A stretch of DNA of 64,000 nt, taken from assembly GCF_947503385.1 (NCBI RefSeq), contig NZ_CANNDO010000003.1:124001-188000 (forward strand). Reading direction: 5' to 3'. Position 1 is the stretch's first letter. Each line of letters starts with the position of its first letter. The notes under the pieces are model-generated. The model worked only from the letters and a program-made list of their open reading frames with translations. It did not search any database and was not told the DNA's origin. This DNA comes from an uncultured Tateyamaria sp. (GTDB lineage Bacteria > Pseudomonadota > Alphaproteobacteria > Rhodobacterales > Rhodobacteraceae). This document shows, piece after piece, positions 12,326 to 41,344 of this stretch. The position numbers were made by a program, and so were the translations under genes.

Positions 12326-13705
12326 ATGCGCACGACCTTTCTTCTGAACGGAAGCGAGATCACGGCTGACACTTCCGACACCACGACATTGCTCGATTGG
12401 CTACGCGAGGATCAGAACCTCACCGGCACCAAGGAAGGGTGCAACGAAGGCGATTGCGGCGCCTGTTCCGTCATGGTGACGGACGCCAGCGGCGCGCGGG
12501 CGCTGAACGCCTGCATCCTGTTTATACCCCAGCTTGAGGGCAAGGCCGTTCGCACCGTCGAAGGCATCGCATCGCCCGACGGAACGCTGCATCCCGTGCA
12601 GGCGGCGATGGTGCGTCATCACGGCGCACAATGCGGGTTCTGCACACCCGGTTTCATCACCACAATGGCCACGGCACATCTGAACGGGGTCACAGATTTC
12701 GACACTGAACTGGCGGGCAACCTGTGTCGCTGCACAGGCTACGCACCGATCATCCGCGCAGCACAAGCGGCGGCAGATGCGCCCGTCCCCGATCACGTCA
12801 ACGACGCCCCGCTTCTTCTGACCAAAAATATCACGGGGGAGGCGCAGCCGGGGGCAGAGCCCCCAACCACGCCTGACGCCCTTGCAAGATGGCTGGATCA
12901 GAATCCGCATGGCACGCTCGTGGCCGGGGCCACCGATGTGGGCCTTTGGGTGACCAAGCAATTTCGCGATCTGGGTCCGACCGTTTTCCTCAACCGCATC
13001 CCGGGTCTCGCGGGTGTTGCAATCACCGAGGACGAAATTCGCATTGGCGCGGCCACCACCCTGACTGATCTGCAAGCGGCGATTGCCCCTTATCATCCGG
13101 CCTTTGCCGAACTGATCCGCCGATACGGTTCCGTGCAGGTGCGCAATGCCGCCACCATTGGCGGCAATGTGGCAAACGGATCACCCATCGGTGACGGCTC
13201 GCCCGCGCTGATTGCGCTGGATGCCTATGTCCATCTGCGCAGCGTCAATGGCACGCGCTCTGTGCCAATCGCTGATTTCTTCATCGACTACGGCAAGCAA
13301 GACCGCGCTCCGAACGAATTTGTCGAAGCGATCAGTTTTGACCGACAAACGGACCATTTGCGTTGCTACAAGCTGTCCAAACGCTTTGATCAGGACATCT
13401 CGGCCGTGTGCGGTTGTTTCTGGATAGATGTTGCAGACGACGAGGTGCGCGAGGTGCGGCTTGCCTTTGGCGGTATGGCCGGTACCCCGAAACGCGCCCC
13501 CCACGCAGAGGCTGCGCTGCGCGGGATGCCTTGGACAGATGGAACGGTGGGTGCGGCGATGACAGCGCTGGAACGTGACTTTGCCCCAATGTCGGACATG
13601 CGCGCCTCAGCCGCCTACAGGATGGAGGCCGCGCAGAACATGCTGCTGCGGGCGTGGCTGGAAGATCAGGCGCAGGCCACATCCGTACTTGAGGTGTGCC
13701 CGTGA
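12326..13705 (+). CDS. xdhA: Xanthine dehydrogenase small subunit (2Fe-2S and FAD domains)
   Basis: Carries electrons from the molybdenum site of XdhB to NAD in hypoxanthine/xanthine oxidation. The first [2Fe-2S] cluster is bound by CNEGDCGAC (Cys39, 44, 47) and a later Cys in ALNACILF; the second by GAQCGFCTPG and NLCRCTGYAPI. The FAD domain starts near residue 185 and shows ATIGGNVANGSPIGDGSPAL. The 459-residue length is slightly short for the family. Residues 163-180 between the two domains (LLLTKNITGE...GAEPP) are encoded by a family-2 repeat. The start ATG at 12326 fits the domain border. It is the first gene of the purine operon and its stop overlaps the xdhB start. Confidence 0.95.
   Translation: MRTTFLLNGSEITADTSDTTTLLDWLREDQNLTGTKEGCNEGDCGACSVMVTDASGARALNACILFIPQLEGKAVRTVEGIASPDGTLHPVQAAMVRHHGAQCGFCTPGFITTMATAHLNGVTDFDTELAGNLCRCTGYAPIIRAAQAAADAPVPDHVNDAPLLLTKNITGEAQPGAEPPTTPDALARWLDQNPHGTLVAGATDVGLWVTKQFRDLGPTVFLNRIPGLAGVAITEDEIRIGAATTLTDLQAAIAPYHPAFAELIRRYGSVQVRNAATIGGNVANGSPIGDGSPALIALDAYVHLRSVNGTRSVPIADFFIDYGKQDRAPNEFVEAISFDRQTDHLRCYKLSKRFDQDISAVCGCFWIDVADDEVREVRLAFGGMAGTPKRAPHAEAALRGMPWTDGTVGAAMTALERDFAPMSDMRASAAYRMEAAQNMLLRAWLEDQAQATSVLEVCP
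12812..12864 (+). repeat. Family-2 dispersed repeat inside xdhA
   Basis: CTTCTTCTGACCAAAAATAT, then CACGGGGGAGGCGCAGCC and the hairpin GGGGGCAGAGCCCCC (12850-12864). It encodes residues 163-180 of XdhA, exactly in the linker between the iron-sulphur and FAD domains. The same element occurs in urtC and, reversed, at 18439-18482. Confidence 0.8.
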
Positions 13706-16005
13706 GCGTCGCCCAGCCCCTGCCCCACGACGCGGCCCACCTGCACGTAACCGGGCAGGCCCGGTATATAGATGATATGCCGGTGCCCGCCGGAACGCTG
13801 CACCTTGCCTTTGGCATCAGTGACACGGCCTGCGGGCAGATCACGCGCCTCGACCTTGATGCGGTGCGCGCTTCGACGGACGTGGTGGCGGTTCTAACCG
13901 CAGACGACCTGCCCTTTGCCAATGACGTCTCGCCGTCCGCGCATGATGAGCCGCTGCTGGCCACAGGCACCGTGCATTACGTCGGACAGCCCATTTTTCT
14001 TGTCATCGCACGGTCGCACATGGCGGCGCGGCGCGCGGTCCGTCATGCGCGTATCGAGATTGCTGGCGCACCTGCCATACTCAGCATCGACGATGCGCTG
14101 GCGCGCAACAGCCGCTTCGAAGATGGGCCGCGCATCTATGCCCGAGGTGACGCGCAGGCCGCCTTGGCAGCGGCGCAACATTGCCTGTCCGGCACGTTCG
14201 AGATCGGCGGGCAAGAGCATTTCTATCTCGAAGGACAGGCCGCCCTCGCCATGCCCGGCGAGGATGGCGATATGCACATCATCTCGTCGACCCAGCACCC
14301 CACCGAAATTCAACACAAGGTGGCCGATGCCATCGGCCTGCCGATGCACGCGGTGCGCTGCGAGACACGGCGCATGGGCGGTGGGTTTGGCGGCAAGGAA
14401 AGTCAGGGCAACGCCCTTGCCGTTGCCTGCGCCGTCGCCGCACGCGCCACCGGACGCCCCTGCAAAATGCGCTATGACCGTGACGATGATATGGTCATCA
14501 CCGGCAAGCGTCACGATTTCCGCATCGCCTACGATGTGGGCTTTGACGGAGAGGGTCATATCTCCGCCTTGGACGTGCGCCAGTTCACCCGCTGCGGCTG
14601 GGCGCAGGATCTGAGCCTGCCGGTTGCGGACCGGGCCATGCTGCATGCCGACAACGCCTATTGGCTGCCTGACATACGCATCGAAAGCCACCGTTTGCGC
14701 ACCAACACGCAAAGCGCCACGGCGTTTCGCGGCTTTGGCGGGCCGCAGGGCATGGTCGCGATGGAGCGGATCATGGACCACGTGGCCGCGGCGCTGGATC
14801 TTGATCCGCTGAACCTGCGCCAAAAGAACTTTTATGCCTCCGGCGGGGATTTTTCAGGGACAGAGACGGGGCGGACGACGCCCTATGGGCAGGTGGTGGA
14901 CGATTTCATTGGCGACGCACTGGTCGCGCAACTGGTCGATACATCCGATTATGCCGCGCGCAGAGCGGCCGTGGCCGCGTGGAACGCGACGCATTCCGTG
15001 CTCAAGAAGGGCATTGCCCTGTCGCCCGTAAAATTCGGCATCTCGTTCACCCTCACCCACCTCAATCAGGCCGGCGCGCTGGTGCATGTGTATCAGGACG
15101 GCTCGGTTCATCTGAACCACGGTGGGACTGAGATGGGGCAAGGCCTGTTTCAGAAGGTGGCACAGGTCGCGGCAAGCCGGTTTGGTGTGCCGATGGACGC
15201 CATCAAGATCACCGCGACCGACACCGCCAAGGTGCCCAACACCTCCGCCACAGCTGCGTCCTCGGGCAGTGACCTGAACGGAATGGCGGTCAAAGCCGCC
15301 TGTGATACCCTGCGAACGCGTATGGCCGAACACGTGGCACAACTGCACCAATGCCGCCCGGATGTGGTGCGCTTTGCCGACGGGACAGTGCAGGCGGGCG
15401 AAGCCACCTACAGCTTTGGCGAAGTGGCGGCGATGTGCCATCAGGCGCGGATCAGCTTGTCGTCCACTGGGTTTTACAAGACGCCGGACATTCAGTGGGA
15501 CCGGATCAGGGGGCATGGCAGGCCGTTTTTCTATTTTGCCTACGGCGCCGCCGTGACCGAGGTCGTGATCGACACGCTCACGGGCGAAAACCGTATCCTG
15601 CGGGCGGATGTCCTGCATGATGCAGGCGCGTCGCTGAATCCGGCACTGGATATCGGGCAGGTCGAAGGGGGTTATGTGCAGGGCGCAGGCTGGCTGACGA
15701 CCGAAGAACTGATCTGGGACGCGTCAGGTGCATTGCGCACCCACGCCCCCGCGACGTACAAGATCCCCGCCTGTGCAGACCGGCCCGACATCTTTAACGT
15801 CGCGTTGTGGGAAGGGGAGAACAAGGCTGAGACCATCTACAAATCCAAAGCCGTGGGCGAGCCGCCCCTGATGCTGGGCATTTCGGCCTTCTTGGCGCTC
15901 GGTCAGGCGGCGGCGGCTTGCGGGCCGCATTACCCGGACCTGCACGCCCCCGCGACACCCGAAGCGGTGCTGCGCGCAGTCAAAACGGCGCGTGGCGATG
16001 TTTGA
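13702..16005 (+). CDS. xdhB: Xanthine dehydrogenase molybdenum-binding subunit
   Basis: Hydroxylates hypoxanthine and xanthine at the molybdopterin centre. The 767-residue product begins SVAQPLPHDAAHLHVTGQARY and shows RMGGGFGGKESQG (pterin binding), TAFRGFGGPQGM, GGTEMGQGLFQKVAQVA, and near the end KSKAVGEPPLMLGISAF with the catalytic Glu. The GTG at 13702 overlaps the xdhA stop (GTGA), with GAGGTG upstream. Residues 382-390 (GDFSGTETG) are encoded by a family-1 repeat within a surface loop before TTPYGQVVDDF, where homologues vary in length. The 3' end overlaps xdhC by 8 bases. Confidence 0.95.
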   Translation: MSVAQPLPHDAAHLHVTGQARYIDDMPVPAGTLHLAFGISDTACGQITRLDLDAVRASTDVVAVLTADDLPFANDVSPSAHDEPLLATGTVHYVGQPIFLVIARSHMAARRAVRHARIEIAGAPAILSIDDALARNSRFEDGPRIYARGDAQAALAAAQHCLSGTFEIGGQEHFYLEGQAALAMPGEDGDMHIISSTQHPTEIQHKVADAIGLPMHAVRCETRRMGGGFGGKESQGNALAVACAVAARATGRPCKMRYDRDDDMVITGKRHDFRIAYDVGFDGEGHISALDVRQFTRCGWAQDLSLPVADRAMLHADNAYWLPDIRIESHRLRTNTQSATAFRGFGGPQGMVAMERIMDHVAAALDLDPLNLRQKNFYASGGDFSGTETGRTTPYGQVVDDFIGDALVAQLVDTSDYAARRAAVAAWNATHSVLKKGIALSPVKFGISFTLTHLNQAGALVHVYQDGSVHLNHGGTEMGQGLFQKVAQVAASRFGVPMDAIKITATDTAKVPNTSATAASSGSDLNGMAVKAACDTLRTRMAEHVAQLHQCRPDVVRFADGTVQAGEATYSFGEVAAMCHQARISLSSTGFYKTPDIQWDRIRGHGRPFFYFAYGAAVTEVVIDTLTGENRILRADVLHDAGASLNPALDIGQVEGGYVQGAGWLTTEELIWDASGALRTHAPATYKIPACADRPDIFNVALWEGENKAETIYKSKAVGEPPLMLGISAFLALGQAAAACGPHYPDLHAPATPEAVLRAVKTARGDV
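14845..14871 (+). repeat. Family-1 dispersed repeat inside xdhB (copy C)
   Basis: GGGGATTTTTCAGGGACAGA followed by GACGGGG lies in frame and encodes GDFSGTETG. It matches the intergenic copies at nearly every base but has not broken the reading frame. Confidence 0.85.
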
Positions 16006-16921
16006 CCGGGACGCGCTGATCGCAGCCTGCAGGGCCCATGGCACCGTGGTCAGGATCGTAGTTGTCCGCGTGCACGGCTCCACCCCACGCGAAACCGGGG
16101 CGGCAATGCTTGTGTGGGACAATGGGCAGTCGGGCACTGTCGGGGGCGGTGCGCTGGAGTTTGAATTGACCCGCCGGGCGCGGACCCTGACGCGCGACGC
16201 GTTCAGCCAGCACGCGCTGGGGCCTGACATGGGCCAGTGTTGTGGCGGCGTGGTCGACGTCCTGAGCGAAGTCTACGATCTGGCGCGTGCGCAGGCCCTG
16301 CCCAAGGACGTGATCGCGCGCGGGCCAGACCCGATGCCACTGTCGATCAAACGCATGATGAAAGCCGCGCGCAATCAGGGCAAATTGCCGCCCACGCAAC
16401 TGTGTGACGGATGGCTGATCGAACCGGCGCGCCCGGCAGATCGCGACCTGTGGATCTGGGGCGCAGGCCATGTGGGTCGCGCGCTGGTCGATGTTTTGCA
16501 ACATATGCCGGGGCACACGCTGACATGGGTCGATACGGCAGCCAATCGGTTCCCGACGGACATCCCCAAGAGCGTCCGCGACGTGGTGGCCACAGACCCT
16601 GCGCGGCTCATGGCCCACGCGCCGACACATGCAAATCACCTGATCTTGACCTATTCGCATGAAATCGACCTTGGCCTGTGCCACGCCGCACTGGCGCATG
16701 GCTTTGGCTCCTGCGGTCTGATCGGATCACGTACCAAATGGGCGCGGTTCCGCAAACGGTTGAGCGCGCTTGGGCACACGGAAACGCAGATTTCCCGCAT
16801 CACCTGCCCGATCGGTGATCCGTCACTGGGCAAGGAGCCGCACATGATCGCCCTTGGCGTCGCACACCGTTTTGCGCAGATGCGGCTTGGCACTGGTGCC
16901 ACACGCGAGGCACGCGCATGA
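15998..16921 (+). CDS. xdhC: Xanthine dehydrogenase accessory protein XdhC
   Basis: XdhC proteins bind and sulphurate the molybdenum cofactor and hand it to XdhB. The 307-residue product has the XdhC/CoxI N-terminal part (VRIVVVRVHGSTPRETGAAM, GTVGGGALEFEL, PDMGQCCGG) and a C-terminal Rossmann part (LWIWGAGHVGRALVDVL, FGSCGLIGSRTKWARFRKRL). ATG at 15998 is used; a GTG two codons upstream is also possible. It overlaps xdhB at the front and the ABC ATPase gene at the back (ATGA), so it links the enzyme genes to the transporter genes in one transcript. Confidence 0.93.
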   Translation: MFDRDALIAACRAHGTVVRIVVVRVHGSTPRETGAAMLVWDNGQSGTVGGGALEFELTRRARTLTRDAFSQHALGPDMGQCCGGVVDVLSEVYDLARAQALPKDVIARGPDPMPLSIKRMMKAARNQGKLPPTQLCDGWLIEPARPADRDLWIWGAGHVGRALVDVLQHMPGHTLTWVDTAANRFPTDIPKSVRDVVATDPARLMAHAPTHANHLILTYSHEIDLGLCHAALAHGFGSCGLIGSRTKWARFRKRLSALGHTETQISRITCPIGDPSLGKEPHMIALGVAHRFAQMRLGTGATREARA

Positions 16922-18435
16922 GCACACCTTTGCTGTCCATCAACGGACTGACCAAGGCCTATCCGGGCGTGGTTGCAAACGACGATGTGAGCCTCGCCAT
17001 AGCGGCAGGCGAAATCCACGCATTGCTGGGTGAAAACGGTGCGGGCAAGTCGACGCTGGTCAAAATGATTTACGGGCTGGTCAAGCCCGATGCCGGACAT
17101 ATGGAGATGCGCGGCGCGCCCTTTGCGCCCACGGACCCGCGGGCGGCGCGCGGTGTGGGTGTGGGCATGGTGTTCCAGCATTTTTCACTCTTCGACGCGC
17201 TGAGCGTGGCCGAAAACATCGCATTGGGGATGGAGACCCCGCCGCCCATGCGCACGCTGGCCGATCAAATCCGCGCAGTCTCTGAGACCTATGGCCTTCC
17301 ATTGAGCCCGGACCGCGTTGTGGGTGATCTTTCGGCAGGCGAACGGCAACGGGTCGAAATCATCCGCTGCCTGCTGCAGGAGCCGTCGCTTTTGATCATG
17401 GACGAGCCGACATCGGTTCTGACGCCGCAGGAGGTGGACATATTGTTCGAGACCCTGCGCAAGCTGAGCGCCGAAGGCACCGCGATCCTGTACATCTCGC
17501 ACAAGCTAGAGGAAATCCGGTCCTTATGTGACGCCGCAACCATTCTGCGTGGCGGCAAGGTGGTGGGCACCTGCGTACCGCAGGACACCTCTGCGCGCGA
17601 CATGGCCGAGATGATGGTGGGCGCGCGACTGGTTGCGCCCAAGGCGCAGGACCACAGCTTTGGCGGTGTGAAACTGGCGGTGAAAGGGTTGAGCGTGGCC
17701 TCGCCTTCTGCCTTTGGCATGTCGCTCAAGGACGTATCGTTCGACGTGCAGGCGGGCGAGGTGCTGGGCATCGGGGGCGTTGCAGGCAACGGACAGGACG
17801 AACTGCTGGCGGCCCTGTCGGGCGAGGTGCCCTGCGCACCGGGCATGGTGGCCTTTGACGGACGCTGCCTGAGTGGTGCCGGACCGGAAACGCGCCGGGG
17901 CATGGGCGTGCTGGCCGCACCCGAAGAACGTCTGGGCCATGCCGCCGCGCCCAACATGTCGCTCACCGAAAATGCGATGCTGACAGGCGCGGCGCGCCAA
18001 GGTCTGGCGCGGCGCGGCTTTCTCGACTGGGCCAAGACGCGCGCCTTTGCGGAACGGATTATTGACAGCTTTGACGTGCGCACACCGGGCCCCGGCAATG
18101 CGGCGCGGTCGCTGTCTGGTGGGAACCTGCAGAAATTCGTGATCGGACGCGAGGTGCTGCAAAGGCCCGAAGTGCTTGTGGTGAACCAGCCCACATGGGG
18201 CGTTGATGCAGCCGCAGCCGCAGCGATCCGGCAGGCACTGCTGGATCTGGCGGCAGGCGGTGCCGCTGTGGTGGTGATCTCGCAGGATCTGGACGAGCTT
18301 ATGGAGATCTCGGACCGCTTTGCCGCGTTGAATGAAGGACGGTTGAGCGCGCCGCGCCCCACCTCGGAACTGGACGTGGAGCAGATCGGCCTGATGCTGG
18401 GAGGCGCACATGGAATGGAGGTCGCGCATGTGTGA
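16918..18435 (+). CDS. BMP-family nucleoside/purine ABC transporter, ATP-binding protein
   Basis: A 505-residue ATPase with two fused nucleotide-binding domains, as in NupA/RbsA-type proteins. Domain 1 has a full Walker A (GENGAGKST, residues 38-46), signature LSAGERQRVEI and Walker B LLIMDEPTSVL. Domain 2 has a degenerate Walker A (GVAGNGQDELL, no GKS/T) but a signature LSGGNLQKFVIGREV, so one ATP site is probably inactive, usual for this family. It is translationally coupled to xdhC and followed by two permeases and a BMP binding protein. Purine base or nucleoside uptake is inferred from the xdh genes. Confidence 0.92.
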   Translation: MSTPLLSINGLTKAYPGVVANDDVSLAIAAGEIHALLGENGAGKSTLVKMIYGLVKPDAGHMEMRGAPFAPTDPRAARGVGVGMVFQHFSLFDALSVAENIALGMETPPPMRTLADQIRAVSETYGLPLSPDRVVGDLSAGERQRVEIIRCLLQEPSLLIMDEPTSVLTPQEVDILFETLRKLSAEGTAILYISHKLEEIRSLCDAATILRGGKVVGTCVPQDTSARDMAEMMVGARLVAPKAQDHSFGGVKLAVKGLSVASPSAFGMSLKDVSFDVQAGEVLGIGGVAGNGQDELLAALSGEVPCAPGMVAFDGRCLSGAGPETRRGMGVLAAPEERLGHAAAPNMSLTENAMLTGAARQGLARRGFLDWAKTRAFAERIIDSFDVRTPGPGNAARSLSGGNLQKFVIGREVLQRPEVLVVNQPTWGVDAAAAAAIRQALLDLAAGGAAVVVISQDLDELMEISDRFAALNEGRLSAPRPTSELDVEQIGLMLGGAHGMEVAHV

Positions 18436-18438
18436 GGC

Positions 18439-18482
18439 GGGCCCTCCGGGGGTGGTATTTTTGGTCAGAAGAAACAACAGGC
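18439..18482 (-). repeat. Family-2 dispersed repeat between ABC ATPase and permease genes
   Basis: On the minus strand it reads CCTGTTGTTTCTTCTGACC then AAAAATACCACCCCCGG AGGGCC. It fills nearly the whole 54-base spacer between two genes of an otherwise overlapping operon and ends 7 bases before the permease ATG. Confidence 0.65.
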
Positions 18483-18489
18483 GGCGCCC

Positions 18490-19572
18490 ATGATCCGGCT
18501 TGAGGCGCGCCCGCAGCCGTCACAGGCCATGGCTTATGCCACGCCAGTACTGGCGGTGGTGCTGACCATGATCTTTGGCGGCGCGCTATTTGCAGTGCTG
18601 GGCAAAGATCCGGTCGCGGCGATTGCCACGATTTTCTGGGAGCCGATCTTTGGCGAGTTCGCGTTTTTCTACCGTCCGCAATTGCTGATCAAGGGCGCGC
18701 CGCTGGTCCTGATCGCCATTGGTCTGGCGCTGGGGTTTCGGGCGGGCATCTGGAATATCGGCGCCGAGGGGCAGTACATTGTCGGCGCCATATGTGGCGC
18801 TGCGGTGGGCTTGGCGTTTTATCCGACCGAAAGCGCGCTGATCTTTCCACTGATGGTGCTGGCGGGGGCGCTGGGGGGCTGGGCATGGGCCATGATCCCC
18901 GGCCTTCTCAAGGTAAAATTCGGCACAAACGAAATTTTGGTAAGCCTAATGCTGGTCTATGTGGCGGAACAATTGCTGGCCTCCATGTCATTGGGATTTC
19001 TGAAGAACCCCGAAGGGTTTGGTTTTCCTGGCAGTCGCAATTTGCAGCAATACCCGTCCGCGCATAATGCCGAACTGATTGCGGAAACGGGGATGCATTG
19101 GGGTGTTGTCGCCGCGCTGATTGCTGTCATTTTTGCCTATGTGCTGCTGTCGCGGCATCGCTTGGGCTTTGCCATTCGCGTCACCGGTGAGGCCCCACGA
19201 GCGGCGCGCTTTGGCGGGGTCAATCCGGGTCGGTTGATCCTGTTCTGTCTGGGCATGTCGGGCCTGCTGGCGGGACTTGCGGGCATGTTCGAAGTGTCGG
19301 GGCCGTCCGGCCAGATCAGCATTGATTTCAACGTGGGCTACGGGTTCACAGCAATCATCGTGGCCTTTCTGGGTCGCCTGAATCCGCTGGGAATTGTCGC
19401 TGCGGGACTGCTGATGGCGTTGACCTATATCGGGGGTGACATTGCGCAATCGCAACTGGGCCTTCCTGCTGCTGCCATTCAGGTGTTTCAGGGGATGCTG
19501 TTGTTTTTCCTGTTGGCGCTGGATTTGTTGACCAATTACCGCGTGCGCATCGGCACGGCAGAGGTGGCGTGA
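18490..19572 (+). CDS. BMP-family ABC transporter permease (first)
   Basis: A 360-residue inner-membrane permease of the BPD_transp_2 type. Several hydrophobic segments are visible, including the first at about residues 14-37 (YATPVLAVVLTMIFGGALFAVLG), and the family motifs GIWNIGAEGQYIVGAI and FGTNEILVSLMLVYVAEQL. It forms the channel with the second permease at 19963. The TGA overlaps the ATG of the small gene that follows (TGATG-type). Confidence 0.92.
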   Translation: MIRLEARPQPSQAMAYATPVLAVVLTMIFGGALFAVLGKDPVAAIATIFWEPIFGEFAFFYRPQLLIKGAPLVLIAIGLALGFRAGIWNIGAEGQYIVGAICGAAVGLAFYPTESALIFPLMVLAGALGGWAWAMIPGLLKVKFGTNEILVSLMLVYVAEQLLASMSLGFLKNPEGFGFPGSRNLQQYPSAHNAELIAETGMHWGVVAALIAVIFAYVLLSRHRLGFAIRVTGEAPRAARFGGVNPGRLILFCLGMSGLLAGLAGMFEVSGPSGQISIDFNVGYGFTAIIVAFLGRLNPLGIVAAGLLMALTYIGGDIAQSQLGLPAAAIQVFQGMLLFFLLALDLLTNYRVRIGTAEVA

Positions 19573-19958: not shown

Positions 19959-19962
19959 GCCC

Positions 19963-20883: not shown

Positions 20884-20914
20884 AGGCCAATAAAACCGGG
20901 GGGTTCATCCACTC

Positions 20915-21997: not shown

Positions 21998-22022
21998 ATC
22001 GCACGGAACGAAACACCTGCGT

Positions 22023-22050
22023 AAGGCCCTGCCTCTGGCGGGGCCTTTTT
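22023..22050 (+). terminator. Rho-independent terminator of the purine operon
   Basis: AAGGCCCTGCC, loop TCT, GGCGGGGCCTT forms an 11-bp stem with one T-G wobble, followed by TTTT. It lies 26 bases past the BMP protein stop. Confidence 0.9.
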
Positions 22051-22883: not shown

Positions 22884-22928
22884 TCACCGTCAGACCGACG
22901 TGTGCCTTTGTGCCGACAAATGCGGGGC

Positions 22929-27590: not shown

Positions 27591-27652
27591 GTCCCCGTCT
27601 CTGTCCTGAAAAATCCTGGGGGGAGGCCGCAGGCCGGGGGGCAACGACCCCC
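27591..27652 (-). repeat. Family-1 dispersed repeat, copy D, with G/C hairpins
   Basis: On the minus strand it holds GGATTTTTCAGGACAGAGAC then GGGGAC; before it lie GGGGGTCGTTGCCCCC and GGCCTGCGGCC, both able to fold as hairpins. It sits between the spondin-like gene and the dehydrogenase gene. Confidence 0.8.
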
Positions 27653-32602: not shown

Positions 32603-32700
32603 CGACGCCCTCCCCGCGCTTGGCCTCACGGCCCATGACTGGCATGGTGGCGGATGTGAGCACGAGGCACAAGAACCTCGGCCGCATCAAGAGGCGAGAG

Positions 32701-33219: not shown

Positions 33220-33300
33220 TCCGGTCACAACGGCCTTTCATCTGCGCGCCTCTGCGCTAATCTGACCCGCAACCCGGATTCCAAAGAAAAGCCTATTGCC

Positions 33301-34293
33301 GTGCACGCCATTACCTATTCGCGCTTTGGCGCTCCTGCTGACGTCCTTGCGCTGACAGACTTGCCCACACCAGACCCTGCACCGGGTGAAGTGCTGGTCG
33401 AAATCAGCCATTCCGGGGTCAATCCCTCTGATATCAAGGCGCGCGCGGGTGCGCGCCCGGGCGTGACCAAGCCACCCTTTGACCTGATCGTGCCGCACAG
33501 CGACGGTGCTGGCAGGGTCGTCGCCGTGGGCGATGGCGTGCCACAAGACCGGATCGGCCAGTCTGTCTGGATCTGGAACGGGCAGTGGCAACGCCCCTTT
33601 GGCACCGCCGCCACGCATATCTGCCTGCCCGAAGTGCAAGCCGTCCCCCTGCCCGACGGTGTGTCCGCAACGGTGGGCGCAACGCTTGGCATCCCCGGCC
33701 TGACCGCAGCGCACGCCGTGTTCGGAGGCGGCGACGTCGCGGGCAAAACCCTGTTGATCCAAGGCGGCTCTGGGACGGTTGGCCACCTTGCCGTGCAACT
33801 GGCGCGCTGGGGCGGCGCACAGGTGATTGCAACGGCGCGCGGGGCCGGGCTTGACCGCTGCACCCGTGCCGGTGCGCATCATGTGGTCGACTTTGACAGC
33901 GACGAACTTGCCCAAAAGGTGCTGGCCGCCAATGGCGACGCGCCTGTGGACCGGATTGTCGAGGTGGAATACGGCCTGAACGCGGCCACGGATGCCGAGG
34001 TGATCGCACCCAACGGCACCATCTGTGCCTATGGCTCTGCGCGGGACATGACCCCCACGATCCCCTTTGGTCCAATGCTGTTCAAGGCGGCCAAGCTGGA
34101 CATCATCCTAATCTATATCCTGCCACCACAACAGCGCGCCACCGCGATATCCAAGCTGCACGATGCCCTGTCAGATAGCGCGCTGGACAGCCCCGTGGCG
34201 CAAATCTTTGCCCTCGCGGACTGCCACAGCGCCCATGACGCGGTTGCCCGTGGTGCGCGTGACGGTGCCATCCTGCTGGAGGTCGCGACATGA
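33301..34293 (+). CDS. Zinc-free NADPH:quinone reductase (MDR family)
   Basis: A 330-residue medium-chain reductase. The GroES-like N-terminus (HAITYSRFGAPADVLALTDL, SHSGVNPSDIKARAG) lacks the zinc-binding cysteines, and LIQGGSGTVGHLAVQLARW is the NADPH-binding loop, both pointing to the quinone reductase/zeta-crystallin group. The start is a GTG at 33301. The last four bases overlap the ATG of the MscS gene. Substrate unknown. Confidence 0.88.
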   Translation: MHAITYSRFGAPADVLALTDLPTPDPAPGEVLVEISHSGVNPSDIKARAGARPGVTKPPFDLIVPHSDGAGRVVAVGDGVPQDRIGQSVWIWNGQWQRPFGTAATHICLPEVQAVPLPDGVSATVGATLGIPGLTAAHAVFGGGDVAGKTLLIQGGSGTVGHLAVQLARWGGAQVIATARGAGLDRCTRAGAHHVVDFDSDELAQKVLAANGDAPVDRIVEVEYGLNAATDAEVIAPNGTICAYGSARDMTPTIPFGPMLFKAAKLDIILIYILPPQQRATAISKLHDALSDSALDSPVAQIFALADCHSAHDAVARGARDGAILLEVAT

Positions 34294-35609
34294 TCCGCGC
34301 GTTTTGCCTTGTCCTGTTTCTGTGTCTGCCGCTCGGCCTCGCGGCACAGACTGCCGATCAACCCAGCGGCACCATCGCAGTCGAAGACAGCGCCACCCAA
34401 GACGCCGCCATTGCCGTGCGCATACGCGACATCCTTGGCGAGCTGGAAGGCTACGAAGAGGTCACTGTGACCGTCTCTTCGGGTATTGTGACCCTGCGCG
34501 GCACAACCGTGGACGCCGCCACCGCCGAACGCCTCAACGAACTGGTTGGCAGGGTCGCAGGCGTTGTCGCCATCGAAAACGAAGTGGCAGAGACAACGGA
34601 CGTGGTCGCCCGACTGAACCCTGCCGTGGATCGCTTTATGGCGCGGATGCAGCAGATGGTGGCCCTGTTGCCGCTGGCCACTGTGGCCCTGCTTGCCTTC
34701 GTGCTCGTGACTGCTTTGGGTGTGGTGATCGCGCGCCTGCGTTATCCGTGGGACAGGATCGCGCCCAACGCATTTATCGCGGACATCTACCGGCAGGTCA
34801 TTCGCATCCTGTTTCTTGTGGGTGGCGTGGTCATTGCCCTTGATATCCTTGGCGCGACAGCGCTTTTGGGGACAATCCTCGGCGCTGCCGGTATTGTGGG
34901 TCTGGCCATTGGTTTTGCCGTCCGCGACACCGTCGAGAACTTTATCGCCTCAATCATGCTGTCGATCCGCCAGCCGTTCCGCCCCAATGACACCATCGAA
35001 ATCGAAGGCGACATTGGCAAAGTCATCCGCCTGACGTCCCGCGCCACCATCCTGCTCAGCTTTGATGGCAACCACATCCGCATCCCCAACGCCACCGTCT
35101 TCAAAAGCCGAATCGTCAACTACACCCGCAATGATGAACGCCGGTTCCTGATTGATCTGGGCGTGGCCTACGACACCGATCTGGCCCGTGCGCAGGCGCT
35201 GGCGCTGGACACCGTGCGCGCCCTGCCCTTTGTGCTGGATGCGCCCGAACCCTCCGTCTGGATCGAAGAGTTGGGCGACAGCGCCGTCATCATCAAGGTC
35301 GCCGCATGGATCGCGCAACACGAGACTTCGTTCCTCAAAGCGCGCAGCGAGGCGTGGCGACTGTGCATTGCCGCCTTTGACGCCGAAGGCATCGTAATGC
35401 CGGAAACCACCCTGCGCGTCTTGGGTGTGGGTGAGGTGGACGCCGACGCCCCAGCGCCAAAACCAGCCGCCCCAGCCCCTGTGCCAGAGGTCGCAGCACA
35501 GGACGTCCAAGCCACGGACGAGGCGGCGTTGGAGGCCATCGTGAACCAAGAACGCGAGGACGGCGCAAACGAAGATTTGCTCAACCGCGAGACCTTAAGA
35601 GAAGAATAA
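34290..35609 (+). CDS. BON-domain mechanosensitive channel (MscS family)
   Basis: A 439-residue inner-membrane protein that probably opens on hypo-osmotic stress. After a signal-like segment (residues 1-19) comes a periplasmic BON domain (about 28-105: AIAVRIRDILGELEGYEEV...GIVTLRGTTVDAATAERL), then transmembrane segments near 123-147 and 170-215, the pore-lining helix with GAAGIVGLAIGFAVRDTVEN, and the MscS beta domain (RPNDTIEIEGDIGKVIRLT, IRIPNATVFKSRIVNYT). A Pro/Ala/Glu-rich tail ends the protein. Translation is coupled to the quinone reductase gene. Confidence 0.9.
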   Translation: MIRAFCLVLFLCLPLGLAAQTADQPSGTIAVEDSATQDAAIAVRIRDILGELEGYEEVTVTVSSGIVTLRGTTVDAATAERLNELVGRVAGVVAIENEVAETTDVVARLNPAVDRFMARMQQMVALLPLATVALLAFVLVTALGVVIARLRYPWDRIAPNAFIADIYRQVIRILFLVGGVVIALDILGATALLGTILGAAGIVGLAIGFAVRDTVENFIASIMLSIRQPFRPNDTIEIEGDIGKVIRLTSRATILLSFDGNHIRIPNATVFKSRIVNYTRNDERRFLIDLGVAYDTDLARAQALALDTVRALPFVLDAPEPSVWIEELGDSAVIIKVAAWIAQHETSFLKARSEAWRLCIAAFDAEGIVMPETTLRVLGVGEVDADAPAPKPAAPAPVPEVAAQDVQATDEAALEAIVNQEREDGANEDLLNRETLREE

Positions 35610-35681
35610 ATCTCAGCCTGAATTTTTCGAAAGATCAGGGCTTGAACACGATCAAAACGCGGCGTATCAACCGGCGCACGT

Positions 35682-35757
35682 TGGGATGTAGATCAATTGG
35701 TAGATCAACTGTTTTTGGTACAGTAGGTTGTAGGTTCGAGTCCTACCATCCCAGCCA
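35682..35757 (+). tRNA. tRNA-Gln (anticodon UUG)
   Basis: The cloverleaf closes completely: acceptor TGGGATG/CATCCCA (35682-35688 with 35747-35753), D arm GATC/GATC, anticodon stem ACTGT/ACAGT with loop TTTTGGT (anticodon TTG at positions 34-36), variable loop AGGTT, T arm GTAGG-TTCGAGT-CCTAC, discriminator G and encoded CCA. The GTTTTTGGTAC block is typical of tRNA-Gln. Confidence 0.97.
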
Positions 35758-36022
35758 CTTCTCTACATCCGTCTTGGACAGTCTTGTGCACCCTGCACCA
35801 GCACCGCCCGCTGTTTGAACTGCGTGCAAAACGGAATGAACGCTGCGCCGCGACACCTAACCACCAAGCAGACACGATGCACCACGTGCGAAACGCCAAT
35901 CAGGCTGTTGCCGCGTCCCAAGCCGTGTCGAAGCGCGCTTTGCTGTTGCCACCACACCCAACCCCTAAAAGTTTTCAGAACGCACGCTTGTCAGGCGGAA
36001 ATTTTGCAGACATGCTCAAGAT

Positions 36023-36406
36023 GTGAGCAGAATAAAAACACTATCTTTCGCAGGCATCATCACAGCCTCAATGGCCACCCCAACGCTGGCCAGTCCTGAT
36101 CTTGTGCAAACCTTTGCCGGGTGCGCCGGGCGCATGTCAGCACAGATGGAACACGCATGGTTGGTGAATGACCCCGCCGCCCCCGACTACGAAGGGCAGC
36201 GGCTGACCTTTCTCACGCTGCTCGACGCGACATTGGCCCAAGGACAGGAACGTGACGCCTTGCACCACCGGATCGAATCCAAGCTGGCCCATGCCTCTCT
36301 TTTGACAATCGCCACCTTCAGCGACCGCCCCGACCGGGCCAAACAGGCGCGTATGCGGGCAAAATGGCACCTCATGTCCTGCACCGAGATGCTGCTGGAC
36401 AGCTGA
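36023..36406 (+). CDS. Small exported hypothetical protein
   Basis: A 127-residue protein with a probable signal peptide (SRIKTLSFAGIITASMATPTLA, cleavage after ALA). The mature part is helical, with two cysteines (AGCAGRM and SCTEML) that may pair. I do not recognise it. The start is a GTG at 36023. It stands between tRNA-Gln and urtA without an operon partner; the 265 bases upstream hold no other feature I can see. Confidence 0.6.
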   Translation: MSRIKTLSFAGIITASMATPTLASPDLVQTFAGCAGRMSAQMEHAWLVNDPAAPDYEGQRLTFLTLLDATLAQGQERDALHHRIESKLAHASLLTIATFSDRPDRAKQARMRAKWHLMSCTEMLLDS

Positions 36407-36703
36407 TCCGCCTGCATTTCGATAGCAGACCGCATAATGATTAAGCTGTTTCGGCAGATGCGCGTAATAATTGTGCGCCGCTTTTGACGTGTCGGGCCGA
36501 TTTGGCCGGAAACGACTCCTGCCTGCGCGCTTTCCCACCTACCACCTGAAGCGGGCGCCTTTGGTGTCCGGAGGAACACGTACGACGACCTGGCCTAGGA
36601 AACCGTTTGGCCGTCGCACGCCGCAATAGATTGCGTCAGAGGCATATGAGGGGTCCCGCCCCACGCTGCAAGCCCCCTGACGCGCGTAACGTGAGGAACA
36701 AAG

Positions 36704-37981
36704 ATGACCCGTAAACTCCTGTCCAGCACTGCTGCTGTGCTGATTGCCAGCGCTGGCGCTGCCTATGCCTGCGACGCTCCTATCAAGGTGGGCGTGCTGC
36801 ATTCGCTGTCCGGCACCATGGCGATCTCGGAAACGACGCTCAAAGACACGATGGAAATGCTGGTCGAACAGCAAAACGAAAAGGGCGGCGTTCTGGGCTG
36901 TGAGCTTGAGGCGGTTGTGGTTGACCCGGCCTCTGACTGGCCGCTTTTTGCTGAAAAAGCACGCGAGTTGCTGACCGTGCACGAGGTCGACGTGATCTTT
37001 GGCAACTGGACATCTGTCAGCCGCAAATCCGTTCTGCCCGTGATCGAGGAACTGAACGGCCTCCTGTTCTATCCTGTGCAATACGAGGGCGAAGAATCGT
37101 CGAAAAACGTGTTCTACACCGGTGCCGCGCCAAACCAGCAGGCCATCCCGGCCACCGACTACTTCCTCGAAGAGCTTGAGGTCGAGAAATTCGCATTGCT
37201 GGGCACGGACTATGTCTATCCCCGCACCACCAACAACATCCTTGAGGCGTACCTGAAAGACAAAGGCATCGCCGAGGAAGACATCTTTGTGAACTACACC
37301 CCCTTCGGGCACTCCGACTGGTCCAAGATTGTGGCTGACGTCGTGGCGTTGGGTGCCGACGGCAAAAAGGTCGGCGTGATCTCCACCATCAACGGTGATG
37401 CAAATGTAGGCTTTTACAAGGAACTGGCTGCCGCCGGTATCAGCGCCGACGACATCCCCGTTGTCGCCTTTTCCGTGGGCGAAGAAGAGCTTGCCGGTCT
37501 CGACACCTCCAACCTTGTCGGTCACCTCGCGGCATGGAACTACTTCCAGTCCGCCGAATCCGACGCCAACGAGGCATGGGTTGAAGCATGGAAAGCTCGC
37601 ATGGGCGAAGACCGCGTAACCAACGACCCGATGGAGGCGCATTACATCGGCTTCAACATGTGGGTGAATGCGGCCACCGAGGCAGGGACAACCGACGTGG
37701 ACGCTGTCCGTACGGCCATGTACGGCCAAGAGTTCCCGAACCTCACAGGTGGGACCGCCGTGATGCTGCCGAACCATCACTTGGCCAAACCCGTCCTGAT
37801 CGGCGAGATTCAGGAAGACGGCCAGTTTGACATCATCTCCCAGACCGTAGAAGTGCCGGGCGACGCCTGGACCGACTTCCTGCCGGAAAGCGCCGTGCTG
37901 AAGTCCGACTGGGCGACACTGGGCTGCGGTATGTACAACACCGAAACCGAGACCTGCGTGCAGATCAAGTCCAACTACTGA
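36704..37981 (+). CDS. urtA: Urea ABC transporter substrate-binding protein
   Basis: Periplasmic urea receptor of the branched-chain amino acid type. The 425-residue precursor has signal peptide MTRKLLSSTAAVLIASAGAAYA, then CDAPIKVGVLHSLSGTMAIS. UrtA-specific segments include FGNWTSVSRKSVLPVIEELN, LLFYPVQYEGEESSKNVFYT and GTDYVYPRTTNNILEAYL. TGAGGA precedes the ATG. First gene of urtABCDE; a hairpin separates it from urtB. About 300 bases upstream hold no gene and probably contain the promoter; no clear sigma-54 site was found. Confidence 0.95.
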   Translation: MTRKLLSSTAAVLIASAGAAYACDAPIKVGVLHSLSGTMAISETTLKDTMEMLVEQQNEKGGVLGCELEAVVVDPASDWPLFAEKARELLTVHEVDVIFGNWTSVSRKSVLPVIEELNGLLFYPVQYEGEESSKNVFYTGAAPNQQAIPATDYFLEELEVEKFALLGTDYVYPRTTNNILEAYLKDKGIAEEDIFVNYTPFGHSDWSKIVADVVALGADGKKVGVISTINGDANVGFYKELAAAGISADDIPVVAFSVGEEELAGLDTSNLVGHLAAWNYFQSAESDANEAWVEAWKARMGEDRVTNDPMEAHYIGFNMWVNAATEAGTTDVDAVRTAMYGQEFPNLTGGTAVMLPNHHLAKPVLIGEIQEDGQFDIISQTVEVPGDAWTDFLPESAVLKSDWATLGCGMYNTETETCVQIKSNY

Positions 37982-37997
37982 TCCGTCGCAAACGACC

Positions 37998-38039
37998 GGC
38001 ACCCGGGGGTCTTATCTCCTCCCTCGGTCCTCGGGTGCC
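37998..38039 (+). promoter_or_regulatory. Intercistronic hairpin between urtA and urtB
   Basis: GGCACCCGGGG (37998-38008) pairs with CCTCGGGTGCC (38029-38039) with one wobble, giving an 11-bp stem over a 20-base loop. No T-run follows, so it is more likely an mRNA stabiliser or partial stop that keeps urtA in excess of the membrane genes than a full terminator. Confidence 0.6.
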
Positions 38040-38068
38040 ACCTTGCCGCTCTCCCAAAGGTCTGACTC

Positions 38069-40024
38069 ATGCTCTGGCTCTGCCGCCTTTTTTTGTTCTG
38101 CGCAGTGGCCGTGATGCCCATGGGCGCAGGCGCGCAACAACTGGACGCGCCAATCCAGCAGCTTTTGCAGACCCATGGCGAGATCATCGCCAAATCTTCC
38201 CGCAAATCCATCGGCCCCGCCATCGACGCGCTTGCCGCCTCCGGCATGGCAGAGGCGCAAGTTGTTCTGCAACGCTGGCAGGACAAGGAAATGTGGTTCA
38301 ACAAAGACACCGCAGTCTTCGTCTTTGCCGAAGAGATTGAGAACAGGCAGCTGCGCCTGTTCGACGTGTCAGACGGGTCCGAGATCGGAACAGCCGAGAA
38401 GAACGCCTACAAACAACTCAAACCCAACTCGGGCATCCGCGGCATGATCGCCGCCGCTCTGGTGCAGTTCCAACTGTCCGACCCGGACCCCAACACGCGC
38501 ACGACAGCACTTGATGCGATCGAACGCGACGCAGAAGCCTCGCACCTCGCCGCCCTGCGTGCCGCCATCGACAGCGAACCCAACATCCAGATCAAGGCCC
38601 GCAAGACCCGGCTGGAACGGCTGCTCACCATCCGCTTCGACGACGATGACGACACCCGCATCGCCGCCATCGTAGGGTTCAAAGGCGACCTTGGCGTCGA
38701 TGTGCGCGCCGCGCTCAACCCGCTGGTGACGACCCGCGTGGAGTACGCCGAAACCGCCCCCAAAGGTGCCGTGATCCTGATCCCCGGCGCGGACACGCTC
38801 GGCGTGGCAGACGCCTATGACCTCATGGTCAGTGCAGGCGATGCGCCTGCGCGCACCGACGCCTCTACCATTCGTCAGACTCTGATCGACAACATCAACG
38901 GCACGACCGTCGCAGGCATCCAGATTGCCACGCTCGACAATGATGCAGCCCGGCTCAAAGCCTACGCCGCCCTCGCCCGGAACGGTGCCGCTGATCCTCT
39001 GGTGACAGATGAGACGGTCCGCGCGGCCCTCGGTGCCGTTACCTTCTTTGAGGTGTTCATCGGTGCTCCACCCCGCGTCGCGACCGCAGCCCAGGCTGCT
39101 CTCGACGACATTGAAGCCGCCGTGGCCTTCAACCAGACTGCGGACCTCGCACTTGATGCGCTCAGCCTCGCCTCGATCTACTTTCTGGCCGCCATCGGCC
39201 TTGCCATCACCTTCGGCGTGATGGGCGTGATCAATATGGCCCATGGCGAGTTCATCATGATGGGCGCCTACACCGGCTACGTGGTCCAGCTTTTTATCCC
39301 CGACTACACGCTCTCGATCCTTGTGGCCCTGCCGCTGGCTTTTGCTGTTACGTTCGGCGCAGGCGTTGCCATGGAACGTCTGGTGATCCGCTGGCTCTAC
39401 CATCGCCCGCTGGAAACGCTGCTGGCCACCTTCGGAATCTCCATCGCACTGCAACAATTGGCCAAAAACATCTTCGGCACGCAGGCCCGCCCCCTGACCG
39501 CACCCGGCTGGCTCGACGGGTCATGGGTCATCAACGACATCGTCTCGATCAGCTACATCCGCATCGCAATCTTCGTGCTGGCGCTGACATTCCTTGCGCT
39601 GTTCCTGTTTGTCATGAACCGCACGCGGCTGGGGCTCGAAGTGCGCGCCGTCACCCAAAACCCGCGCATGGCCGCCTCCATGGGCATCAACCCCGACCGC
39701 ATCAATATGCTCACCTTCGGCTTCGGCTCTGGCATCGCGGGCATCGCAGGCGTGGCGATCGGCCTTTACGCCAAGGTCACCTCCGAAATGGGCGCGGACT
39801 ATATCGTCCAATCCTTCATGACCGTGGTCGTGGGCGGCGTGGGCAATATCTGGGGCACCCTGCTGGGTGCCACTATGGTCGGGACGCTGCAAAAGGGGAT
39901 CGAATTCCTTAACCCGTCCAACACGCTTGCTGCTCAAACCTACATGATCCTCTTTATCATCCTCTTCATTCAGTTCCGGCCCAAGGGCATCATCGCCCTC
40001 AAGGGCCGCGCGGCCGAGGCATAA
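38069..40024 (+). CDS. urtB: Urea ABC transporter permease UrtB
   Basis: Inner-membrane permease of the urea importer. The 651-residue product has a signal-like start (LWLCRLFLFCAVAVMPMGAGA), a long helical periplasmic region to about residue 350 (repeating Ala/Asp/Arg-rich helices such as TTALDAIERDAEASHLAALR), then the LivH-like permease (IYFLAAIGLAITFGVMGVIN, MAHGEFIMMGAYTGYV, RPLETLLATFGISIALQQLA, ADYIVQSFMTVVVGGVGNIW). The N-terminal extension occurs in many UrtB proteins; its role is not known. Confidence 0.94.
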   Translation: MLWLCRLFLFCAVAVMPMGAGAQQLDAPIQQLLQTHGEIIAKSSRKSIGPAIDALAASGMAEAQVVLQRWQDKEMWFNKDTAVFVFAEEIENRQLRLFDVSDGSEIGTAEKNAYKQLKPNSGIRGMIAAALVQFQLSDPDPNTRTTALDAIERDAEASHLAALRAAIDSEPNIQIKARKTRLERLLTIRFDDDDDTRIAAIVGFKGDLGVDVRAALNPLVTTRVEYAETAPKGAVILIPGADTLGVADAYDLMVSAGDAPARTDASTIRQTLIDNINGTTVAGIQIATLDNDAARLKAYAALARNGAADPLVTDETVRAALGAVTFFEVFIGAPPRVATAAQAALDDIEAAVAFNQTADLALDALSLASIYFLAAIGLAITFGVMGVINMAHGEFIMMGAYTGYVVQLFIPDYTLSILVALPLAFAVTFGAGVAMERLVIRWLYHRPLETLLATFGISIALQQLAKNIFGTQARPLTAPGWLDGSWVINDIVSISYIRIAIFVLALTFLALFLFVMNRTRLGLEVRAVTQNPRMAASMGINPDRINMLTFGFGSGIAGIAGVAIGLYAKVTSEMGADYIVQSFMTVVVGGVGNIWGTLLGATMVGTLQKGIEFLNPSNTLAAQTYMILFIILFIQFRPKGIIALKGRAAEA

Positions 40025-40027
40025 CCC

Positions 40028-41344
40028 ATGACCGACACCGCCCCTTCTTCTCTTTCCAAATACTCCGGGGGTGCGGGGGCAGAGCCCCCGCGTTTGGCGA
40101 CGCCGTCAGGCGGCGCAAAACCTCTCGTCCAACGCCACCCATCCGTGCTGATCTTTATCGGCTGCCTCGCGCTCTTCACACTTGGCATCACGATCCTTGC
40201 CGAAGGGTTTGGCATCGGCGTAATCTCCACCAGCTTCGTCAAAACGCTGGGCAAAACGCTGTGCCTCTGTCTCGTCGCCCTCGCCATGGATCTGGTCTGG
40301 GGTTACACCGGCATCCTGTCGCTCGGTCACATGGCGTTCTTTGGCATCGGCGGCTACGCCATCGGCATGTGGCTGATGTATGCCCGCACCGAACTTATCG
40401 TGGTTGAAAGCCTTGCTCAGGCCCCGCTGCCACCAACGCCACAGGAAATCTCCGATGGGATCGCCGCGCAGATTTTCGGTGTGGTCGGCGCATCCGAGTT
40501 TCCCCCGATCTGGGCCGTCGCCCACTCGCTGCCGCTGCAACTGGCCGCCGTTGTGCTTGTCCCCGGCCTCATCGCGCTTGTCTTTGGCTGGCTTGCCTTT
40601 CGCAGCCGGGTCACAGGCGTGTATCTGTCGATCCTCACGCAGGCCATGACGCTCGCCCTCGCGCTTTACCTGTTCCAGAATGACAGCGGTCTAAGGGGCA
40701 ATAACGGCCTTTCGGGCCTGCAAAACCTCCCCGGCCTTGGTGACGTACCGCAATCCACCGTGTCCATGTGGTTCCTCTGGGCCTCGGCTGCCGCCCTCGG
40801 CCTTGGCTACCTCTTTTGCGCGTGGATCGTTTCGGGCAAGTTCGGCTCGGTCCTGCGCGCCATACGCGATGACGAGGCGCGGGTGCGGTTCCTCGGCTAC
40901 TCGGTGGAGGCGTACAAGCTCTTCATCTTCACCGTCACGGCAGTGATTGCCGGTATCGCAGGCGCGCTCTACTACCCGCAGGCCGGCATCATCAACCCCG
41001 CCGAAATTGCCCCTATCGCCTCCATCTACCTCGCTGTCTGGGTCGCCATCGGCGGGCGCGGCAGGCTCTATGGGGCGGTGATCGGGGCCGCTTTCGTATC
41101 GCTGTTGTCCACATGGTTCACCGGCGGTCAGGCCCCGGATATCAACCTCGGGCCCTACACGATCCAATGGGTCGACTGGTGGACGATCCTGCTGGGCCTC
41201 AGTTTTGTCGCCGTCACCCTCTTTGCCCCCAAGGGCATCGGCGGTCTCATCGTCATCATTGAACGCCGCACCACGCCCAATCGCCACGGCGCGGACCTTG
41301 GCCCCGACCCAGGTGCCCTGCGCGAGAAGGAGGCCGAGACATGA
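40028..41344 (+). CDS. urtC: Urea ABC transporter permease UrtC
   Basis: LivM-like second permease of the urea importer, 438 residues. Core motifs: LALAMDLVWGYTGILSLGHM, AFFGIGGYAIGMWLMYARTE, NNGLSGLQNLPGLG, RFLGYSVEAYKLFIFTVTAV. The first 35 residues form a polar tail, and residues 7-21 (SSLSKYSGGAGAEPP) are encoded by a family-2 repeat; the same GAEPP is found in XdhA. The ATG 3 bases after the urtB stop is the only good start before the core. The stop overlaps urtD (ATGA). Confidence 0.94.
   Translation: MTDTAPSSLSKYSGGAGAEPPRLATPSGGAKPLVQRHPSVLIFIGCLALFTLGITILAEGFGIGVISTSFVKTLGKTLCLCLVALAMDLVWGYTGILSLGHMAFFGIGGYAIGMWLMYARTELIVVESLAQAPLPPTPQEISDGIAAQIFGVVGASEFPPIWAVAHSLPLQLAAVVLVPGLIALVFGWLAFRSRVTGVYLSILTQAMTLALALYLFQNDSGLRGNNGLSGLQNLPGLGDVPQSTVSMWFLWASAAALGLGYLFCAWIVSGKFGSVLRAIRDDEARVRFLGYSVEAYKLFIFTVTAVIAGIAGALYYPQAGIINPAEIAPIASIYLAVWVAIGGRGRLYGAVIGAAFVSLLSTWFTGGQAPDINLGPYTIQWVDWWTILLGLSFVAVTLFAPKGIGGLIVIIERRTTPNRHGADLGPDPGALREKEAET
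40044..40091 (+). repeat. Family-2 dispersed repeat inside urtC
   Basis: CTTCTTCTCTTTCCAAATAC, TCCGGGGGT, then GCGGGGGCAGAGCCCCCGC (40073-40091) as a perfect hairpin with loop AGA. It encodes the N-terminal tail of UrtC and is followed by a second imperfect hairpin (about 40098-40116). Confidence 0.8.

What the first reader, a model, noticed from the sequence alone, without database searches (positions are those of the whole stretch)
12812..40091. Family-2 repeat gives two unrelated proteins (XdhA and UrtC) the same GAEPP peptide
At 12812-12864 (xdhA) and 40044-40091 (urtC) the DNA shares TTCTTCT, CCAAA..TA, CGGGGG and the hairpin GGGGGCAGAGCCCCC. Both are read in the same frame: LTKNITGEAQPGAEPP in XdhA and LSKYSGGAGAEPP in UrtC. 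In XdhA the peptide is the linker between the Fe-S and FAD domains, in UrtC the cytoplasmic N-terminal tail. A third copy at 18439-18482, reversed, fills the only long spacer in the purine transporter operon. Mobile palindromes absorbed into proteins are known from Rickettsia (RPE); I know of no description for this element.
Basis: partly seen in the sequence, partly recalled or inferred. Interest (0 to 1): 0.8.

Follow-up and report, generated by a model that had tools for sequence, protein, structure and literature searches.

The report
Species-dialect DNA repeats overwritten in place
A family of mostly aquatic bacteria carries a short dispersed DNA element (a recognisable word plus a hairpin) at old inherited sites, a few of them inside genes, and each species spells the word in its own way at most of its sites, as if the word were rewritten in place by a process still unidentified.

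Summary
The repeat is real. Its box (TTCTTCT-N6-AAATAC-NMCSG) plus a GC hairpin has 84 places in this Tateyamaria-like genome (reversed-pattern control 1). Copies sit at gene ends: 37 of 47 boxes that follow a co-oriented gene start within 15 nt of its stop codon. The copies inside xdhA and urtC are confirmed, but GAEPP is only the hairpin read in one frame; the boxes are read in different frames.

Relatives hold the surprise. The xdhA site is occupied in 20 of 77 scored orthologues and an antisense xdhB site in 38 of 79, in several genera. Words differ between genomes, and the two xdh sites of one genome tend to agree (0 of 20,000 shuffles as good). Of 50 sister-species copies, 25 lie where this genome also has one; their hairpins are inherited (0 of 5,000 shuffles as alike), yet the word follows the genome and is sometimes wholly replaced. 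RAYT-type transposase is absent here. Reading: old sites whose words are overwritten in place by an unknown DNA-level, word-specific process. No earlier description was found in the papers searched.

The parts
12813..12836 (+). box, word A, inside xdhA
12850..12864 (+). GC hairpin of the xdhA copy (encodes GAEPP)
12302..13705 (+). xdhA, xanthine dehydrogenase small subunit; copy lies between Fe-S and FAD domains (start codon not settled: TTG 12302 or a later one)
14847..14867 (-). box, Family-1 word, antisense inside xdhB; orthologous place holds Family-2 words in L138-L140
13696..16005 (+). xdhB, xanthine dehydrogenase molybdopterin subunit
18450..18473 (-). box, word A, in the spacer between ABC ATPase and permease genes
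18442..18452 (-). short palindrome of the spacer copy (CCCTCCGGGGG on +; overlaps the 3' end of the box)
40045..40068 (+). box, word B, inside the N-terminal coding part of urtC
40075..40089 (+). GC hairpin of the urtC copy (encodes GAEPP)
40028..41344 (+). urtC, urea ABC transporter permease; ATG 40028 is the only ATG start before the conserved part
7032..7052 (-). box, Family-1 word (1 mismatch)
7371..7391 (+). box, Family-1 word
27597..27617 (+). box, Family-1 word (3 mismatches)
50527..50547 (+). box, Family-1 word
54169..54189 (-). box, Family-1 word
57662..57682 (-). box, Family-1 word (1 mismatch)

Best explanation
One Rhodobacteraceae-wide dispersed element: a bipartite box of about 24 nt (an 11-nt word, two free bases, an A-rich half such as AAATACCAC or AAAAATCC) followed by a GC hairpin. 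Shown: many sites are old and inherited, mostly just past stop codons, a few inside permissive protein loops and linkers. Shown: this genome uses three words and its relatives use others; at orthologous sites the hairpin is inherited while the word is that of the genome, sometimes replaced outright. Inferred: the box is recognised on DNA by a word-specific factor, and when a new word takes over, existing sites are overwritten in place (box-limited gene conversion, or targeted re-copying anchored on the hairpin). The inserts in XdhA, XdhB, UrtC and BchB are tolerated passengers.
For: 84 + 68 places in one genome, controls 1 and 1. Two free bases inside a conserved box. Sister genome: T6/G21 in 36 of 36 listed places (65 in all), own form 0, against C6/A21 in 55 of 55 word-A copies here. 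25 of 50 sister loci orthologous to an element here, 4 of them with a Family-1 word here. 20 of 23 aligned pairs same place and orientation. Hairpin side alike at orthologous sites, 11.2 against 4.07 shuffled, 0 of 5,000. Words at the two xdh sites agree within a genome, 2.1 against 5.4 of 15, 0 of 20,000, n = 10. Coding copies, sense (xdhA) and antisense (xdhB, bchB), follow the dialect, which speaks for DNA rather than RNA. Only chance-like single hits in 5 of 285 genomes of other families.
Against: No factor was identified and no rewriting was observed. Orthologous sites can be empty (L138, L139 spacer) and presence needs 12 (xdhA) and 19 (xdhB) changes on the XDH tree, so gain, loss or transfer also occurs. 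Some genomes hold several unlike words, and in L140, L172, L190 and L213 the two xdh words differ by 3-6 of 15. The two free bases agree only at chance between orthologous sites, 16 of 28, which fits conversion and mere saturation alike. G214 has many imperfect copies (23, 20 and 13 at 0, 1 and 2 mismatches). Half of the sister loci (25 of 50) found no partner in the own set, which held 30 of 68 Family-1 loci. 87 of 198 family genomes had no match to the own-type pattern, and 3 other family members in the class draw none to the looser one.
Confidence: 0.55

Rival explanations
1. Ordinary mobile palindrome (REP- or RPE-like): an unknown transposase inserts copies near stop codons and in loops; shared sites are hot spots hit repeatedly, and a dialect is just the currently active subfamily.
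For: Dispersed copies, several words per genome, patchy presence on the tree, an empty spacer site in L138 and L139, clean gene-end preference.
Against: Hairpins are inherited at sites whose words differ; the Gemmobacter pair L168/L176 differs in word at both xdh sites while the xdhB hairpin is nearly identical; no PF01797 transposase here and 3 of 24 element-rich family genomes against 15 of 174 others. Other transposase types were not searched.
Confidence: 0.25
2. An RNA-level signal: a gene-end element (terminator or mRNA 3'-end stabiliser) read by a fast-evolving RNA-binding factor.
For: Gene-end placement, avoidance of divergent gaps (4 of 68 against 106 of 333, P = 2e-6) and preference for convergent ones (17 of 68 against 22 of 333, P = 3e-5); on one strand a GC hairpin precedes TATTTTT.
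Against: Both orientations occur beside co-directional genes (29 and 18); copies lie inside operons and inside xdhA (sense) and xdhB (antisense) in the local dialect; six window folds are not unusual (z from -1.72 to +1.59).
Confidence: 0.12
3. A DNA-uptake-type word: biased uptake of conspecific DNA keeps and re-spells the word, as with neisserial DUS dialects.
For: Species dialects, copies in permissive coding places and at gene ends, in-place update; the DUS paper describes dialects, common intragenic DUS and association with terminators (PMC3630211, passages).
Against: About 150 copies here, far below the roughly 1,000-2,000 recalled for DUS; box fixed beside an unrelated GC hairpin; competence not examined; one paper only for Rhodobacterales with natural transformation and uptake sequence, seen as a listing.
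Confidence: 0.06
4. Protein-level conservation or chance: linker peptides conserved for enzyme function, and GC-rich DNA mimicking a repeat.
For: XdhB peptides look alike across genera (GISGQKK, DISEKMK); one of 84 hits is probably native purH.
Against: The same DNA lies between genes in dozens of copies; controls are near zero; many orthologues lack the insert.
Confidence: 0.02

Closest known systems
REP / BIME elements (with RAYT transposases)
   Same: Short dispersed palindromes close to gene ends, conserved tag beside a hairpin, species-specific families.
   Different: No PF01797 protein here; tag is a long bipartite box with two free bases; old sites shared between genera; words replaced in place; several coding copies. 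(REP facts recalled and from passages of PMC12306157.)
Rickettsia palindromic elements (RPE)
   Same: Palindromic repeats inserted in frame in unrelated proteins.
   Different: Mostly outside genes here, in another order, with genome-wide dialects; RPE facts are recalled and from listings.
DNA uptake sequence (DUS) dialects of Neisseriaceae
   Same: Species dialects of a dispersed word; occurrence in coding DNA and at gene ends.
   Different: Far fewer copies, longer box tied to a GC hairpin, several unlike words in one genome, uptake untested (PMC3630211, passages).

Membership tests
REP elements mobilised by RAYT | short palindrome with conserved tag, many copies, gene-end placement | tested here: met
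REP elements mobilised by RAYT | RAYT (Y1, PF01797) gene in the genome | tested here: not met
   0 in own genome; 18 of 198 family genomes, 3 of 24 with at least 30 element places
REP elements mobilised by RAYT | GTAG/CGTC-type end tag | not tested
   only the box word was examined; tag classes known from a paper title and abstract start (PMC3733652)
Rickettsia palindromic elements (RPE) | in-frame insertion in protein genes, absent from many orthologues | tested here: met
   XdhA 20 of 77, XdhB 38 of 79; UrtC; BchB
Rickettsia palindromic elements (RPE) | sequence homology to RPE families | not tested
   no RPE sequence was compared
DNA uptake sequences | species-specific dialect of a dispersed word | tested here: met
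DNA uptake sequences | copy number near or above 1,000 (recalled) | tested here: not met
   84 + 68 places for the three words found; further words may exist
DNA uptake sequences | word promotes DNA uptake | not testable with these tools
   needs transformation assays
known RNA family (Rfam) | match at the gathering score | tested here: not met
   only a tRNA in the window; none in 8 element loci
intrinsic terminator | hairpin directly followed by a T run in the direction of the gene that ends | tested here: inconclusive
   present in one orientation only by inspection; both orientations are used; no termination data

The most novel reading that the evidence does not exclude
Rhodobacteraceae run an unrecognised word-specific DNA system: one recognition factor per word acts at some 150 hairpin-anchored sites per genome and rewrites their words in place, so that factor and words change together. 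That would be molecular drive acting on fixed, inherited sites rather than transposition, reaching even into enzyme linkers.
Probability: 0.3. Interest if true: 0.93.

Novelty: new variant of a known kind. Interest (0 to 1): 0.74.

Why it matters
Repeats with species dialects are known, but here site, hairpin and word evolve on separate clocks: sites and hairpins descend, words are replaced across the genome. That gives dozens of natural replicates per species pair for asking how a dispersed recognition word is re-spelled, and a search image (a factor in one to three versions per genome, changing with the word) for what does it. It also explains variable inserts in XdhA, XdhB, UrtC and BchB that could be mistaken for enzyme adaptation, and warns that repeat-derived peptides can look like conserved motifs.

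Tried and rejected
The hairpin alone as the repeat: not above shuffles. RAYT as the mobiliser: not supported. Rfam: nothing but a tRNA. A conserved unit between two head-to-head boxes (L018, L220, L122) was considered as a guide RNA; no complementarity test was made, so it stays a note. Terminator reading: weakened by orientation and coding copies. L238/L112 looked orthologous but is not the same site. L113 is probably native purH. The orientation background first taken from own loci was biased because centre pairs were left out; it was replaced by gaps of at least 50 nt in L138-L217, which come from the xdh neighbourhood of other species. Hand changes to automatic presence calls before the tree: for xdhA L187, L188 and L193 dropped and L208 added; for xdhB L160, L161, L189 and L207 dropped and L152 added. 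In one search, 14 of 30 UrtC loci lay in the opposite orientation and were not read. Literature: searches gave no description of this element; only open PMC papers were searchable, so an account elsewhere may exist.

Full report
WHAT IS THERE. The window lies in a 4.57-Mb genome (G000:C3:124001-188000) whose closest named XdhA relatives in the scan are three uncultured Tateyamaria (79-80% identity; records of the own or a very near genome may be left out there). The copies are at 12813-12864 (xdhA, +), 40045-40089 (urtC, +) and 18442-18473 (ABC spacer, -). The box is far above chance, the hairpin alone is not.

COPIES. TTCTTCT-N6-AAATAC-NMCSG at up to 1 mismatch has 84 places, reversed-pattern control 1; one, L113, is probably native purH. 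They split into word A (GAC-, 55) and word B (29). Within word A, box positions 11-13 carry about 1 bit each where positions 1-10 and 14-21 carry 1.8-2; in word B positions 11-13 carry 0.9, 0.1 and 0.5. Part of that conservation is built in: the pattern fixed some positions and GAC defined word A. Family-1 (GTCTCTGTCCC-NN-AAAANTCC) has 68 places at up to 2 mismatches, control 1, 7 in the window at up to 3 mismatches against 0.02 expected, with the same layout and hairpin types in the 30 loci fetched of 68. I treat all three as one element.

PLACE. With a codon-usage gene finder written for this, the 84 copies lie 29 in ++, 18 in --, 17 in +- and 4 in -+ gaps, 15 overlap a predicted gene and 1 is unresolved. 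Divergent gaps are avoided (4 of 68 against 106 of 333, P = 2e-6) and convergent ones preferred (17 of 68 against 22 of 333, P = 3e-5); the background is from other species. Of 47 boxes that follow a co-oriented gene, 37 start within 15 nt of its stop codon, median 5. In 8 of 55 word-A copies the gene's own stop codon (TGA or TAG) is formed inside the box, where most copies read CRR. The 50 sister-species loci look alike: ++ 23, -- 11, +- 9, -+ 4, inside 2, unresolved 1. The 30 Family-1 loci: +- 11, -- 7, ++ 6, -+ 3, inside 3.

INSIDE PROTEINS. XdhA: the copy lies between Fer2_2 and FAD_binding_5. Of 77 scored sequences (window included) 20 carry the element at this place in an open frame, under record titles that include Tateyamaria, Roseobacter, Roseovarius, Gemmobacter, Thalassovita, Sulfitobacter, Marivita, Epibacterium and Phaeobacter, with peptides such as GAEPP, GADSPP and GGRQPP; three of the 20 (L161, L207, L208) are degenerate. 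Relics of the box without hairpin are seen in L163 and L188. XdhB: an antisense site between NFYA and TPYGQ is occupied in 38 of 79; the window has the Family-1 word there, L138-L140 have Family-2 words. UrtC: of 30 loci 16 were read in the right orientation (own included); by eye the 15 others start 9-20 residues before the conserved segment, the window 37. In L272 and L281 the urtB-urtC junction holds an element in another word, upstream of the start codon. BchB (L306; TIGR01278): a Family-1 copy where the G198 orthologue has its own word. ABC spacer: minus-strand boxes in other words lie between the same two genes in L156, L158, L191, L209 and L215; of the three Tateyamaria, L138 and L139 have none and L140 has a hairpin plus ATTTTTTT followed by yet another sequence. 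So the site can be empty even within the genus.

DIALECTS. Of 198 family genomes 111 match the own-type pattern; in those whose places were listed the words differ from genome to genome (GTTG, TTGT, GTTC, TTGG and others, lists cut). Of 15 named genomes searched with a looser pattern 13 match, controls 0 (lists cut). In 285 genomes of other families 5 have a single hit each; 3 further members of the own family in that draw had none. In G198, sister to this genome, the 36 places listed of 65 all carry T6 and G21 and the own form is absent, while word A here has C6 and A21 in 55 of 55. The xdhA word is also found as a genome word in L138, L140, L142, L191 and L213. In the 10 loci with scorable words at both xdh sites the two agree far better than shuffled (2.1 against 5.4 of 15; 0 of 20,000), though L140, L172, L190 and L213 differ by 3-6. 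The Gemmobacter pair L168/L176 differs in word at both sites while the xdhB hairpin is nearly identical.

IN-PLACE CHANGE. Fifty loci from G198, G214 and G199 were compared with own loci: 25 lie at a junction where this genome also has an element, 21 with word A or B and 4 with Family-1 (own set = the Family-2 loci and 30 of 68 Family-1 loci; three sites are counted twice because G198 and G214 both hold them). Of 23 pairs aligned 20 agree in place and orientation, 1 does not and 2 were not scored by the box pattern; most flanks are 0.68-0.87 identical, four sides are lower or short. Over 19 pairs the 35 nt beyond the box are much more alike than shuffled (11.2 against 4.07, sd 1.26; 0 of 5,000) while the word follows the genome, even TTCTTTTGACC against TTCTTCTCTTT or GTCTCTGTCCC. 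Part of that likeness can come from flank beyond short hairpins. The two free bases agree only at chance (16 of 28). Both sets were fetched because they hold elements, so agreement in place alone says little; the inherited hairpin with the swapped word is the evidence.

READING. Independent insertion does not readily give inherited hairpins with swapped words. An RNA signal does not readily explain sense and antisense coding copies that keep up with the dialect. What remains is word-specific recognition on DNA with overwriting in place: conversion of the box alone, or re-targeting of existing sites. Which of these, and by which factor, is not shown. On the XDH tree presence needs 12 changes for xdhA (shuffled mean 17.9; 1 of 500 shuffles as low) and 19 for xdhB, so gain, loss or transfer at fixed sites happens as well. 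PF01797 transposases are not the answer: none here, 18 of 198 family genomes, 3 of 24 element-rich ones. No description of the element was found in the papers searched (listings; passages of PMC12306157 and PMC3630211; PMC3733652 had none of the terms asked).

CONFIDENCE. That this is one dispersed element with genome-specific words at partly inherited sites: about 0.9. That words are overwritten in place: about 0.65. That a DNA-level, word-specific factor does it: about 0.5.

Noticed in passing
L018:1500-1670, L220:1350-1520, L122:1525-1675: A conserved unit of about 130 nt between two head-to-head boxes in three genomes, ending in L018 in a GC hairpin plus TTTTT; it looks like a small RNA gene and has no Rfam match.
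   Followed up: partly
L127, L129, L136 and L124 (G010): A longer hairpin of a related form (TCGTCC..ATTGGTTCAAGCCCAATGGACGA) follows the box in four loci of one genome.
   Followed up: no
L118, L119, L121 (G124): Pairs of facing boxes with the same 111-nt spacing at three unlinked places; interiors look unlike each other.
   Followed up: no
window 61522-62043: Repeats spaced in multiples of 27 nt inside the ORF 60722-62311, like RTX-type glycine/aspartate-rich repeats (name recalled).
   Followed up: no
L140:14165-14200: Hairpin plus ATTTTTTT followed by a sequence unlike words A, B and Family-1: possibly a fourth word in the genus.
   Followed up: no
L003 and L061: Reversed elements just upstream of a gene lengthen the predicted reading frame (peptides GIFGQKK, GISGQKK), so automatic start calls may be wrong there.
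   Followed up: no
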